A stretch of 64,000 nt of DNA from Candidatus Blochmannia sp. SNP (GTDB lineage Bacteria > Pseudomonadota > Gammaproteobacteria > Enterobacterales > Enterobacteriaceae). Position numbers and translations under genes: made by a program. Shown here in pieces: positions 17,037 through 21,931 of this stretch; within the stretch, counting starts at the first letter, position 1; the number at the start of each line of letters is the position of its first letter. The DNA lies in the NCBI RefSeq assembly GCF_036549215.1, contig NZ_CP144371.1, forward strand, positions 496,001-560,000, given 5' to 3'. The notes below the pieces were generated by a model. It searched no databases and was not told the origin of the DNA. It was given only the letters and a program-made list of their open reading frames with translations.

Positions 17037-17822
17037 TTATAAATGTATTAGACGTTTTTGAGCTTGTTTAGCTGCATCACTATTAGGGTATAATTTACCT
17101 ACTTGTCTATATATTACTTTAGCTTTATCTTTTTGTTCTGTTTCTTGCATGATGATACCAATTTTTAATAATGCGTCTGATGCTTTTATTGATTTAGGAT
17201 AATTTTTTACTACTAAAGCAAAATAATAAGAAGCATCATCTTTATTTCCTTTATTATAATAAAGTTGTCCTAGCCAGTAATGAGAATTAGATTGATAAAT
17301 TGATTTTGGATAATTTTTTATAAAATTTTGAAAAGCTTCTATTGCTTGATTGTATTGTTTTTTTTCTAATACTAATAATACTGCTTTTTTATAAGCAGTA
17401 TCTGCATCAATTATTGTTGTATTATTAATTTCTTTATGTTTTTCGGTGTTTGAGTTAATGGATAATTTATCAGAATCATTATTATAATAATGCGTATTGT
17501 TATGTTGTTTTAAGATATTATTTATTTTTTGACATAATTCGTTTTGATTATTTATAATTTCTGATATATGATGTTGCATATCTTGAATATATCCACGCAA
17601 TGTATCAATATCTTGTTGATTTTCGCCTAATTGTTGTTGTATTTGAATTAAGCATTGACTGTGAACATCGGATATTTGATGTAATTGATTAATACTTTGA
17701 TTTTTATATGTTTTATTGCTTGTTTCTTTGGCATAGATAATATTATGATTTGTAATATCAAAATATCCAGTGATCAGCATGATACCTATGTGTAATTTAG
17801 ATAAAAATGGTAATAATTTCAT
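17037..17822 (-). CDS. cpoB: Cell division coordinator CpoB (YbgF)
   Basis: Periplasmic TPR protein that binds TolA and links outer-membrane constriction to septal peptidoglycan synthesis. It has 261 residues (E. coli 263). The N-terminal hydrophobic stretch is a signal peptide. A glutamine-rich coiled coil follows (about 40-105), a low-complexity Asn/His linker (about 107-135), and a C-terminal TPR domain with AYKKAVLLVLEKKQYNQAIE, YWLGQLYYNKGNKDDA and YPKSIKASDALLKIG. It is last in the tol-pal operon, 11 bp after pal. TolA, its partner, is frameshifted here. Confidence 0.95.
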   Translation of the reverse strand: MKLLPFLSKLHIGIMLITGYFDITNHNIIYAKETSNKTYKNQSINQLHQISDVHSQCLIQIQQQLGENQQDIDTLRGYIQDMQHHISEIINNQNELCQKINNILKQHNNTHYYNNDSDKLSINSNTEKHKEINNTTIIDADTAYKKAVLLVLEKKQYNQAIEAFQNFIKNYPKSIYQSNSHYWLGQLYYNKGNKDDASYYFALVVKNYPKSIKASDALLKIGIIMQETEQKDKAKVIYRQVGKLYPNSDAAKQAQKRLIHL

Positions 17823-17833
17823 TATATTAAATA

Positions 17834-18361
17834 TTATTTATATATTAATACAGCACGTCTATTTTTAGAGTAGGCTGCCTCGTTATGTCCTGATACAGCT
17901 GGTTTTTCTTTGCCATAGGATACAGTAAATATTTGATCGGATAATATACCTTTGCTTTGTAGATATAATTTTATCGAGTTAGCTCGACGTTCACCTAATG
18001 CAATATTATATTCTGGAGTACCGCGTTCATCTGCATGACCTTCAATTTTGATATGATATGATGGATTATTATATAAGAAATTAGCATGAATATTTAATAT
18101 ATAAAAAAATTGAGAAGAAATATCATACTGATCTAAAGGAAAATAAATAACATTATTAGATTTTAATTCTTGCATTTTTAGTCCTAATTTCTCGTTGGTT
18201 ACTTTATTATTTTTTGTATGAATCTGTGCAAAAGGATCTAGTTCAATTTTTTTTTGATTATGAATAGTAGTAGTGTGTTTAGGTAATATAGAACATGCAG
18301 TGATAATTATGCTTATACTTACTGCAAATGTTAATTGTCTAAAAAAATTATTTAATTTCAT
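17834..18361 (-). CDS. pal: Peptidoglycan-associated lipoprotein Pal
   Basis: Outer-membrane lipoprotein that binds peptidoglycan and interacts with TolB and TolA. With ATG at 18359-18361 the precursor has 175 residues (E. coli 173) and a lipobox ITAC with Cys23 as lipidation site. An in-frame ATG at 18379 would add six residues to the n-region; the shorter form looks more like a lipoprotein signal. The C-terminal OmpA-like domain is strongly conserved: [40 protein letters not shown] and RRAVL. The linker between lipid anchor and domain is diverged. Confidence 0.96.
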
Positions 18362-18422
18362 TATACGTCTATTATTCATAATTTTATCAAATTGTTGATT
18401 ATAATGGAAACAGCTTTATATT

Positions 18423-19811
18423 TTATTCTGCATATAATGGAGACCAAGTCGGGAATTTTATATCTCCTTGCCCTCCTTTTATATGAGCTTTAAAATGTCC
18501 ATCTGCAGAAATTAATTCTAAATTAGATGTTGTTGTACAATCTTTAATACTGCTATATACTACCATGGTATTGTTAGGCGCTATACTGGGGGTATCGGCT
18601 AATAATACATTTGTTAATATTTCTTCTTGACCAGTTAATAAATTCAATCTAGCAATATTTTGCTTCCCTTGATGTCTATTTACCATCATTATAAATGTTC
18701 CATCTGAACTAACTTTTGGATTTTGATTGCTAGTGTGTAGCCAAGATAATCTTTGGGTATCAGTAGTATTTATATTAATTTTATATATTTGTGGTTTTCC
18801 TCCTTGATCAGAAGTATAAGCTATATTTTTATTATCTGGAAACCAATTAGGTTCAGTATTATTGTTTCTGTTTTTAGTTAATTGTTTAATTTCTCCAGAT
18901 TCTAAATCCATAATATATAAATTTAAGCTACCTGTTTTTGATAAAGCAAAAGCTATTTTTTTACAATCGGGAGAAAAAGCAGGAGCTCCATTATGATTTG
19001 GAAAATTAACAATGTTATTAATTAATCCAGTTCGTAATGTTTGAATAACAAGTTCTGAATGACCAGAAGCAAAAGTGACATAAGCAATTTTTTTTCCGTC
19101 TGAAGACCAGGCTGGAGACATTAATGGTTCAGTTGATCGGCAAACCGAAATTTGGTTATGACCGTCATAATCAGCAATATGTAATTCATAAGGATATTTA
19201 TTGTCCTTGATATACGATATATAAGCAATACGTGCGCAAAATGCACCTTGTATACCGGTTAATTTTTCAAAAATTTCATTACTTATAGTGTGAGCTGCGT
19301 GACGTAGCCATTTTTTTTCTACTGAATATTGATTTTCAGAAATTATCAATGCAGGATTTTTAGAGGTATCTATTAAATGATATGAAATAACATAATTTCC
19401 ATCGTAATTTATATGTGTTGTTCCTAATACAATAGTATTAATACCTAATTTTTCCCAAAACGTTGGGATTATATCAGATATTTTGGTGGGTTTATGTGGT
19501 AAATATTCTACGGGAATAGTATTAAATTTACTACTATTTCGTAAATCGGAGGCTATTATTAATGCTATATCTTCATCTGGGTCAGATTTACCATATTGTT
19601 GATTATTAATATACTCAAAAGGCATTACAGCAATGGGGCATGCAGTATTTACTCCACATGTAATTTCAATATGCATATCAGCTGAAAGCAATGAAAATTG
19701 ACATAAATATAATATCAACATCATTGATAAAGATGTGTGTATTAACCAGTTTTTCCATATTGATGGTATATTAATTTTTTTAATTGTTAAATGCATTGAA
19801 AAATTTTGCAT
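18423..19811 (-). CDS. tolB: Tol-Pal system protein TolB
   Basis: Periplasmic protein that binds Pal and shuttles between Pal and TolA. Domains: N-terminal alpha/beta domain ([13 protein letters not shown] to KLTGIQGAF), then a six-bladed beta-propeller with repeats such as [40 protein letters not shown] and [21 protein letters not shown] long N-terminal leader with a hydrophobic core serves as signal peptide. The start is uncertain: ATG 19811, ATG 19796 and a TTG at 19820 are in frame and none has a good ribosome binding site. It is about 30 residues longer than E. coli TolB (430) because of this leader. Confidence 0.96.
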
Positions 19812-20334
19812 GAAAATCAAATTTATTTAATAGATTAATATATTCTCATTTTCTGAATGTGTAAATATTTTGTTTATTGAGGAGAAAAATTTAAAATTAC
19901 GTTTTTAAAGACTTCATATACATCTGTGTTTGGTGGTTTAGGTATTTTTGCTGATTTAGTAGCAATAATTGCTGCTTGACACAACGAAGTATCTCCAGAT
20001 ATTGCGGTTATTGACAACAATGTACCATCAGGCGCTAATTTTATGCGCAGGTCACATTTTTTACCAATATAGTTAGAAGCATTATAAAATTTTTGTTGAA
20101 TTGATTCGCTAATCATGCGTTTGTATGTATTAATTTCATTATTTTTAATTATGTTCCCTGTGATATCATCATGATTATTATTGTTTTTTATTATAAAGTT
20201 TAACTTAATTTTTTCATTATTTTTTGTGGAGTTTTGTTTATTAATTAGCGTATTTAATAGATTGCTTAACGTGTTAGAATCATGAGGTGTTTTATTTAGT
20301 TCATTATATACTAATGTATTTTTTGTGGATATAG

Positions 20335-20575
20335 TGTGTTTTTGATTTTCTTTTTTTTCAGGGACGTTATTTATTGTGCGTCCTTCCAATGGACGTTGTG
20401 TTTCTGTTATTTTGAATCGATTTGATTGATCTTGATTTTTCTTTTTTTCAGGGACGTTATTTATTGTGCGTCCTTCCAATGGACGTTGTGTTTCTGTTAT
20501 TTTGAATCGATTTGCGTTGTGTTTCTGTTATTTTGAATCGATTTGATTGATCTTGATTTTTCTTTTTTTCTATTT
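20335..20575. repeat. 90-bp minisatellite within tolA
   Basis: A 90-bp unit (20394-20483) encodes the 30 residues from PLEGRTINNVP through EKKKNQDQSNR to FKITETQR. Its last 59 bp recur upstream as a diverged copy (20335-20393). Its first 31 bp are present twice at 20484-20545, and its first 56 bp once more from 20515 to about 20570. The pattern on the plus strand is Y'Z-XYZ-X-XY, with X 31 bp, Y 25 bp and Z 34 bp. It lies in the low-complexity linker of TolA, a domain that varies in length between species. Confidence 0.9.
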
Positions 20576-20651
20576 CAGTATTAGGGGTTTGTATAAAAGT
20601 ATTGATTGAACTTTTATTGTCAGTGGTATTAGTAACATACTGCTTTTTTTT

Positions 20652-20691
20652 TGTGATTATGTGTTTATTTAATAATAAACACATAATCACA
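20652..20691. repeat. 18-bp perfect inverted repeat inside the tolA membrane anchor
   Basis: Arms 20652-20669 and 20674-20691 are exact reverse complements with a 4-base loop. The repeat is within coding sequence for the end of the TolA transmembrane helix and the basic residues after it. A hairpin in the mRNA here could affect translation, but no role is known. Confidence 0.85.
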
Positions 20692-20793
20692 TGTATAATA
20701 ATTGATATCATAATAGCAAATTTGAATTTTTTGTTATCTTTATTGAGCAAATGTATTAATTTCATTGAGTAATATTATAGATCGGTTATATAC

Positions 20794-21219
20794 CTAAGTG
20801 GCAGGATTTGTGATCATTCCAATGGAATGTACCCCAATTTTACTTAATAAATTTAAAATTTTAATGATTTCATCATACGCTATGGCTTTAGACGCAGCGA
20901 TCAGACATGTTATGTTAGGAGTAATATATATTTGATGACTTATTTCCGATGAAATCCGATCTAGACATATTTGCCTTATGTGTTTATTATTAATGATGAG
21001 ATTATAAAGGCCCATTCCTAAAATTTCAATGGTCATTATAAGTTTTTCATTATTGATAACATTTGGTGCTACTTCACTATTTGGAAGATTTACTTCAAAG
21101 CTTTGTATCAATTTAGATGGTATTATCATAAAAATTATTAAAAGAACTAGTAATATATCTAAAAAAGGTATGATGTTAATATCTGATTTAATAGCGCGTT
21201 TTATTCTCTGTCTCTTCAT
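20794..21219 (-). CDS. tolR: Tol-Pal system protein TolR
   Basis: Inner-membrane proton-channel partner of TolQ. It has 141 residues (E. coli 142). The single membrane helix carries the proton-path aspartate in NIIPFLDILLVLLIIF (Asp21), followed by a periplasmic domain ending YDEIIKILNLLSKIGVHSIG. An AAGGA site lies eight bases before the ATG and the N-terminus KRAIKSDINIIP matches E. coli, so the start is secure. The first 32 bp overlap the end of tolQ in another frame. Confidence 0.97.
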   Translation of the reverse strand: MKRQRIKRAIKSDINIIPFLDILLVLLIIFMIIPSKLIQSFEVNLPNSEVAPNVINNEKLIMTIEILGMGLYNLIINNKHIRQICLDRISSEISHQIYITPNITCLIAASKAIAYDEIIKILNLLSKIGVHSIGMITNPAT

Positions 21220-21931
21220 GTTTATTTTCCTTATTTAGCGCGGCGTCAATGTTAAAAAAAATCTGACGATATAAAATTGCGATAAATTCTTCTATAAAAT
21301 TATTATAATTTTGATCTAAATTATTTATTTGTGTAGTTAAATAATTAAATGCCATAACTGCTGGAATAGCTACGAATAAGCCAATTGCTGTAGAAATTAG
21401 TGATTCAGCAATGCCCGGTGCAATGATTTGTAAATGAATCATTTGAGTAGCAGTATTATTAGTAGTTTTACCTAATTCGATAAAAACATGCATAATTCCC
21501 AGAACGGTTCCGAATAGACCAAGGTATGGGCTAATGGATCCTATTGTACCAATCAATGGGATATAATCTTCTAAGGTTTTTAATTCTATATTTATTGCAG
21601 TATGCATAGTATCTAATGTTCTGGATATTATTATTTCAGACGAACAATGTTTTATATGATATAGCCTGGAAAATTCTTTAAAACCTACATAAAAAATTTG
21701 TTCAGCGCCGTTTAATTTATTACGACGAGATGAAGATTTTTGATACAAACTAGCTAAGTCTATACCAGACCAAAATTCATTTTCAAATAATTTTAATTTT
21801 TTATGGGCTATATTAAGCGCAAAAACACGATGAAAAATAACACTCCAAGATAAGACAGAGAATCCAAGTAGCATGAATATACTAATTTGTACTAAAATAT
21901 CAGCTTCTAGAAATAAATCAAAGATATTCAT
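21188..21931 (-). CDS. tolQ: Tol-Pal system protein TolQ
   Basis: Inner-membrane motor protein that uses the proton gradient with TolR to energise TolA. It has 247 residues (E. coli 230). It has three membrane helices: one near the N-terminus and two after position about 130, with GLFGTVLGIMHVFIELG and APGIAESLISTAIGLFVAIP. The C-terminal tail (NKENKHEETENKTRY) is an extension that runs 32 bp into tolR; in E. coli the two genes do not overlap this way. ybgC, which precedes tolQ in E. coli, is gone. Confidence 0.97.
   Translation of the reverse strand: MNIFDLFLEADILVQISIFMLLGFSVLSWSVIFHRVFALNIAHKKLKLFENEFWSGIDLASLYQKSSSRRNKLNGAEQIFYVGFKEFSRLYHIKHCSSEIIISRTLDTMHTAINIELKTLEDYIPLIGTIGSISPYLGLFGTVLGIMHVFIELGKTTNNTATQMIHLQIIAPGIAESLISTAIGLFVAIPAVMAFNYLTTQINNLDQNYNNFIEEFIAILYRQIFFNIDAALNKENKHEETENKTRY

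What the first reader, a model, noticed from the sequence alone, without database searches (positions are those of the whole stretch)
20457..20545. tolA is broken by an exact 31-bp tandem duplication
31 bp (20484-20514) are repeated exactly at 20515-20545 in the middle of tolA. As 31 is not a multiple of 3, the frame shifts. Removing one copy rejoins the N-terminal anchor and the C-terminal domain III into a 286-codon frame. All other tol-pal genes are intact, and both TolA ends look well conserved, so the lesion seems recent. Shifting frame before the duplication does not help, because that frame meets a TAA in the second copy. This could be a reversible repeat-length switch, a fresh loss of TolA, or a read/assembly artefact.
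Basis: seen in the sequence. Interest (0 to 1): 0.78.

Follow-up and report, generated by a model that had tools for sequence, protein, structure and literature searches.

The report
Likely assembly seam in tolA repeats
An ant symbiont's tolA gene looks broken by a 31-base repeat, but the break lies in a known, hard-to-assemble repeat stretch and matches the 31-base seams left at the ends of sister genome records, so it is probably an assembly error rather than a mutation or a switch.

Summary
In detail: 31 bp at 20484-20514 recur exactly at 20515-20545 and split tolA. It is the only exact tandem duplication with a 19-400 bp unit in 250 kb of this genome. The genome is almost certainly BSEQ (CP144371), the Blochmanniella of Camponotus vicinus: length within 1 bp, lptG split as published. 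BSEQ was built from short reads as two scaffolds merged in Geneious. The array was also an assembly gap in B. vafer. Seven of 14 genus records have an untrimmed terminal overlap of exactly 31 bp; in two this seam lies in the tolA array. Array units are multiples of 3, so copy-number change would not switch the frame. Best reading: an untrimmed merge or circularisation seam (0.78). Main weakness: the 31-bp seams come from records of another pipeline (MinYS), whereas BSEQ was published as Shovill/SPAdes. A real recent loss remains possible (0.18); a reversible switch is very unlikely.

The parts
20484..20514 (-). one of the two adjacent identical 31-bp copies
   Evidence: TRF; script
20515..20545 (-). 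the other adjacent 31-bp copy (first in reading direction)
   Evidence: TRF; script
20394..20424 (-). third identical 31-mer, one 90-bp unit further on
   Evidence: script
20342..20514 (-). 90-bp tandem array in the middle of tolA (1.9 copies, 97%); the 31-bp step interrupts its first unit in reading direction
   Evidence: TRF; unit table and offsets
20457..20765 (-). tolA N-terminal piece: anchor end, reads out of frame after the first 31-bp copy and stops
   Evidence: similarity to relatives (no Pfam match)
19874..20479 (-). tolA C-terminal piece with domain III (PF06519, E 2.3e-30)
20794..21219 (-). tolR (ExbD/TolR family), intact
21188..21931 (-). tolQ (MotA/TolQ/ExbB family), intact
18423..19820 (-). 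tolB, intact
17834..18379 (-). pal (OmpA family), intact
17037..17822 (-). ybgF/cpoB (TPR, TolA-binding trimerisation domain), intact

Best explanation
The 31-bp tandem duplication is most likely an untrimmed 31-bp overlap left where two contig ends were joined inside the tolA tandem-repeat array, when the short-read assembly was merged or circularised. It then came to lie inside the record when the circle was rotated to the dnaK start. In the living symbiont tolA is then probably intact, with an array of unknown true length. Shown: the array; the anatomy of the 31-bp step; 31-bp terminal overlaps in 7 of 14 genus records, 2 of them in this array; merging of two scaffolds in the published pipeline. 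Inferred: the identity of the genome, the rotation of the record, and that one of its joins is this one.
For: (1) 7 of 14 genus records have a terminal overlap of exactly 31 bp; the other 7, G000 among them, have none of 8-349 bp. The last base of G000 is the first base of a minus-strand frame that I recognise as dnaK from its start, which suggests rotation. (2) In 2 of those 7 (G007, G013) the 31-bp seam lies in the last tolA unit, all but its last one or two bases; a third record, G005, also begins and ends in the array, without overlap. (3) The array was a gap in the B. vafer Illumina assembly, closed by Sanger sequencing (PMC3017870 passages). (4) The genome matches BSEQ (783,876 bp in print, 783,877 here; lptG split as published), built from MiSeq reads with Shovill/SPAdes as two scaffolds merged in Geneious. 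(5) It is the only exact tandem duplication with a unit of 19-400 bp in 250,000 bases sampled. (6) The exact run at offset 31 is just 31 bp, so there is no microhomology at the junction, unlike slippage between array units, which would add whole 90-bp units. (7) The last 150 codons of tolA keep dN/dS 0.17 against G010, like tolR 0.185 and tolB 0.145. (8) The in-frame stops in the G007 and G013 arrays also look like assembly errors: 17 of 17 unit-private differences are transversions, against 0 of 3 in four older reference records.
Against: The 31-bp overlaps are in records of which I tie several to the MinYS study, while BSEQ was published as Shovill/SPAdes, whose largest k (127 for Shovill, recalled) should set the overlap length. 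That Shovill's k list starts at 31 is recalled, and the passages seen in two papers did not state it. The MinYS paper's own runs used k of 51-81; that 31 is its default is recalled. If the deposited array is true, its longest exact internal repeat at the offsets tested (31, 59, 90, 121) is 73 bp, which 300-bp reads cross. Simple joining of two ends of equal k-length in the array does not give this odd total length (arithmetic). The authors mapped reads back and saw no coverage break, though that need not reveal a 31-bp insertion. BSEQ has another real-looking frame break, lptG. The two tolA units of the intact relative G010 also differ by transversions only (3 of 3), so that pattern is not confined to broken arrays.
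Confidence: 0.78

Rival explanations
1. A real, recent 31-bp partial-unit duplication in the tolA array that destroys TolA in this lineage, part of ongoing decay of envelope genes (lptG and ybiS are reported lost in BSEQ too).
For: lptG is split in G000 but both LptF/LptG-family genes are whole in G010, G007 and G006; against G010 there is a one-base length difference at the split, not in a long homopolymer. The paper lists hisH, lptG, rluD and ybiS as putatively inactivated. Tandem arrays are mutable. Constraint on the C-terminal piece only says that a loss would be recent.
Against: PF06519 is kept in 14 of 14 genus genomes. tolA is one open frame in 10 of 14 as fetched and in G005 by its 275-aa database entry. 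Array changes are expected to add whole units. A step of exactly 31 bp in the stretch where sister records have 31-bp seams would be a coincidence. tolQ, tolR, tolB, pal and ybgF are open (dN/dS 0.125-0.30).
Confidence: 0.18
2. A reversible repeat-length switch (phase variation) that turns TolA on and off.
For: Copy number of the array differs widely between records (none or about 1 to 6.5), and two entries that appear to be from one lineage differ by one unit (P0007 and P0009).
Against: Array units are 81, 87, 90, 99 and 102 bp, all multiples of 3, so copy change keeps the frame. No 31-bp spacing of this 31-mer in the tolA stretches of 13 relatives, though 4 of them (G003, G009, G011, G012) have no match within 7 mismatches at all. 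Two 31-bp copies are too few for frequent slippage (inference).
Confidence: 0.02
3. The lesion is bypassed by transcriptional slippage or ribosomal frameshifting, so full TolA is made.
For: Slippage in poly-A tracts is proposed or reported as a rescue of Blochmannia frameshifts (passages).
Against: A run of 7 A lies upstream of the step, but the needed frame meets a stop inside the first copy. Between the start of the 31-bp copies and the stop of the first frame there is no run of 5 or more A or T; the next run (7 A) starts 9 bases past that stop. The reported rescues concern indels inside homopolymers, which this is not.
Confidence: 0.02

Closest known systems
tolA tandem-repeat array of Blochmannia (Williams & Wernegreen 2015, PMC4389277, Table 2; passages seen)
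   Same: Same gene and central position; near-identical units of 81-102 bp in five of six species; here 90 bp.
   Different: Published arrays have 4.4-6.5 copies (B. obliquus has no such array, only a 17-bp repeat of 2.1 copies); here 1.9 copies with a 31-bp step that breaks the frame.
Untrimmed 31-bp terminal overlap of circular contigs (seven sister records)
   Same: Exact 31-bp direct duplication, two of seven in the tolA array.
   Different: There at the record ends; here inside a record, apparently rotated, published with another assembler.
E. coli tolA repeat-region variability (Zhou et al. 2012; seen only as cited in PMC4389277)
   Same: A repeat region in tolA that varies.
   Different: Distinct location and shorter repeats, according to PMC4389277.

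Membership tests
Blochmannia tolA tandem-repeat array | tandem units of about 80-100 bp in the middle of tolA | tested here: met
   90-bp period, 20342-20514, 97%; unit table
Blochmannia tolA tandem-repeat array | array in one open frame joining the anchor and domain III | tested here: not met
   two frames, 102 and 201 aa
k=31 assembly seam | exact direct duplication of 31 bp | tested here: met
   7 of 14 records have terminal overlaps of exactly 31 bp
k=31 assembly seam | lies at a place where contigs of this genus end | tested here: met
   record ends in the tolA array in G005, G007 and G013, 3 of 14
k=31 assembly seam | the published assembler of this record leaves 31-bp overlaps | tested here: inconclusive
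   Shovill/SPAdes plus Geneious merge; the k-mer list was not in the passages seen
k=31 assembly seam | absent from raw reads | not testable with these tools
   no read data on hand
phase-variable repeat switch | repeat unit not a multiple of 3, with copy-number change between relatives | tested here: not met
   array units 81-102 bp, all multiples of 3; no 31-bp spacing in the tolA stretches of 13 relatives, 9 of which hold a match within 7 mismatches
functional Tol-Pal system | tolQ, tolR, tolA, tolB and pal present and open | tested here: not met
   as deposited, all but tolA are open; ybgC is missing in all six Blochmannia of PMC4389277

The most novel reading that the evidence does not exclude
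The lesion is real: the symbiont of Sierra Nevada C. vicinus has just lost TolA through a blunt partial-unit duplication, alongside lptG and ybiS. It would be a lineage caught dismantling its outer-membrane machinery while the other Tol-Pal genes are still intact.
Probability: 0.15. Interest if true: 0.45.

Novelty: not a real feature. Interest (0 to 1): 0.15.

Why it matters
If it is a seam, it is a warning: seven of the 14 Blochmannia records held here carry untrimmed 31-bp ends, and tolA pseudogene calls, copy counts and in-frame stops in this genus should not be trusted from short-read assemblies. If it were real, it would be a recent first step in the loss of the Tol-Pal system in an obligate symbiont.

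Tried and rejected
Tried: distant DNA relatives of tolA in the plasmid collection (no match). A genome-contig scan with TolB (one distant, unrelated locus). Protein searches for an independent assembly of the same lineage: the C-terminal piece listed 21 proteins, itself (P0001) and at best 86-88% relatives (P0002-P0004); the N-terminal piece listed only this genome's own 84-aa fragment P0022; G010's TolA listed 41, of which the close ones are again Blochmannia entries. So no second assembly of BSEQ was found. I read the sequences of 12 of the 21 proteins.

Considered and rejected: a repeat-length switch (array units are multiples of 3); rescue by poly-A slippage (no run of 5 or more A or T between the step and the stop); a lesion at the record boundary (blastn of the boundary against G010, G007, G006 and G004 runs across it in one alignment each). 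A simple model of two equal k-length ends joined end to end inside the array does not fit, because the total length is odd (arithmetic only).

Left out of the transversion count: G010 and G000 (two units, no majority; G010's units differ at 3 places, all transversions, G000's only beyond the repeat's exact end), G005 (split between the record ends), and G001, G002, G004, G008, G012 (one unit or none).

Not settled: P0005 and P0010 (C. modoc and B. camponoti; 3 and 9 member sequences) are TolA entries that start inside the array. They may come from records cut there or from frame breaks; their DNA was not on hand.

Full report
What is there. On the minus strand tolA spans 19874-20765. A 31-bp sequence at 20484-20514 is repeated exactly at 20515-20545. 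The step shifts the frame, leaving an N-terminal piece of 102 aa (20457-20765; no Pfam match, assigned by relatives) and a C-terminal piece of 201 aa (19874-20479) that carries TolA domain III (PF06519, E 2.3e-30). tolQ, tolR, tolB, pal and ybgF are open. Of 58 G010 ORFs of 80 aa or more in the matching stretch, 57 have a hit in the window; among those of 100 aa or more, only tolA and one gene cut by the window edge have a best match under 90% of their length.

The 31 bp lie in a 90-bp tandem array (20342-20514, 1.9 copies, 97%), and a third identical 31-mer sits 90 bp further on. Such arrays are known: PMC4389277 (passages) reports tandem repeats of 81-102 bp in tolA, 4.4-6.5 copies, in five of six Blochmannia; B. 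obliquus lacks them. PMC3017870 (passages) says that the tolA repeat was one of three gaps in the B. vafer Illumina assembly and was closed by Sanger sequencing.

Which genome. The window is bases 496001-560000 of a single 783,877-bp contig; five of the 13 genus relatives have the lengths printed for B. floridanus, B. vafer, B. turneri, B. obliquus and B. pennsylvanicus. PMC12779916 (passages and section 14) describes BSEQ, accession CP144371, symbiont of Camponotus vicinus from the Sierra Nevada: 783,876 bp, lptG putatively inactivated. In G000 one LptF/LptG-family gene is split while G010, G007 and G006 have both whole. I take G000 to be BSEQ; this is an inference. BSEQ was assembled from 2 x 300 MiSeq reads with Shovill/SPAdes; two scaffolds were merged with Geneious, and reads mapped back showed no coverage break at over 5,000x. 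'tol' does not occur in the paper's main text; its supplements could not be read here.

The seam evidence. I compared the first and last bases of all 14 genus records. Seven (G001, G002, G004, G007, G008, G010, G013) have a terminal overlap of exactly 31 bp; the other seven have none of 8-349 bp. In G007 and G013 the overlapping ends lie in the last tolA unit, all but the last one or two bases; G005 also begins and ends in the array, without overlap. Several of the seven belong to the MinYS study (PMC9251289; passages): 783,921 bp (G004) is named as its genome in PMC10838126; 780,612 (G010) with 780,543 averages to its C. sp. 2-JDM value; 746,321 (G001) fits its B. ocreatus. The passages I read give no k, and the MinYS paper's own runs used 51-81; a default of 31 is recalled. 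G000 has no terminal overlap, but its last base is the first base of a frame that I recognise as dnaK, so it was probably rotated and a seam would now lie inside the record. In 250,000 bases of G000 the only exact tandem duplication with a unit of 19-400 bp is the one in tolA.

Other signs that this array is assembly-fragile. In G006, G003, G011 and G009 the units are identical but for 3 bases, all transitions. In G007 and G013, cut in the array, there are 17 unit-private differences, all transversions, one of which in each record makes an in-frame stop. That pattern suggests error k-mers used to walk through the repeat. Against this, the two units of the intact G010 also differ by 3 transversions. 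Copy number is about 1-2 units in G002, G004, G008, G010, G005 and G000 and 4.4-6.5 in G006, G003, G011 and G009; G001 and G012 have no clear array, and G013 and G007 show 5.0 and 3.2 units at one end. This fits collapse of the array by short reads but does not prove it. Two database entries that appear to be from the C. nipponensis symbiont differ by one unit (P0007, P0009).

Selection. Against G010, dN/dS is 0.17 for the last 150 codons of tolA, 0.37 for the first 60, 0.185 for tolR, 0.145 for tolB, 0.125 for tolQ, 0.18 for ybgF and 0.30 for pal. Both tolA ends have evolved under constraint, so a loss, if real, is recent. PF06519 is present in 14 of 14 genus genomes.

Weighing. A real duplication needs a blunt partial-unit event of exactly 31 bp, in the stretch where sister records have 31-bp seams, in a gene that is one open frame in 10 of 14 genomes as fetched and in an eleventh by its database entry; the other two relatives are the suspect G007 and G013. 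A seam needs one untrimmed join in the known gap site of a two-scaffold assembly. The weak point is that the 31-bp signature belongs to records assembled with another pipeline; SPAdes would be expected to leave overlaps of its largest k. BSEQ also carries a real-looking frame break in lptG, a one-base length difference outside long homopolymers. A switch is not supported because the array units (81, 87, 90, 99, 102) are multiples of 3, and the tolA stretches of 13 relatives show no 31-bp spacing of the 31-mer (9 of the 13 hold a match within 7 mismatches).

What it would do if real. The N-terminal piece would keep the membrane anchor and end in a short out-of-frame tail; the C-terminal piece would lack the anchor. 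TolQ-TolR could then not act on Pal through TolA (established knowledge of the Tol-Pal system). Nothing here tests that.

Noticed in passing
G001, G002, G004, G007, G008, G010, G013 record ends (L103/L104, L099/L105, L100/L108, L083/L082, L101/L110, L093/L094, L090/L089): Seven of 14 genus records have untrimmed terminal overlaps of exactly 31 bp, so each record holds 31 bases twice.
   Followed up: yes
L082 1013-1300 and L089 1010-1446: The tolA arrays of G007 and G013 differ between units only by transversions (17 of 17) and carry an in-frame stop each; these look like assembly errors rather than pseudogenes.
   Followed up: yes
L118 (G000 91621-92660, minus strand): One LptF/LptG-family gene (lptG by the BSEQ paper) is split into two frames in this genome but whole in G010, G007 and G006; one-base length difference, not in a long homopolymer.
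   Followed up: partly
P0005 and P0010: TolA database entries of the C. modoc symbiont and B. camponoti start inside the repeat array: either records cut in the array or frame breaks there.
   Followed up: no
P0007 and P0009: Two entries that appear to be from the C. nipponensis symbiont differ by one tolA repeat unit: real variation or collapse.
   Followed up: no
L091 start and L092 end: The record ends on the first base of what I recognise as the dnaK start codon; the boundary is continuous with relatives.
   Followed up: yes
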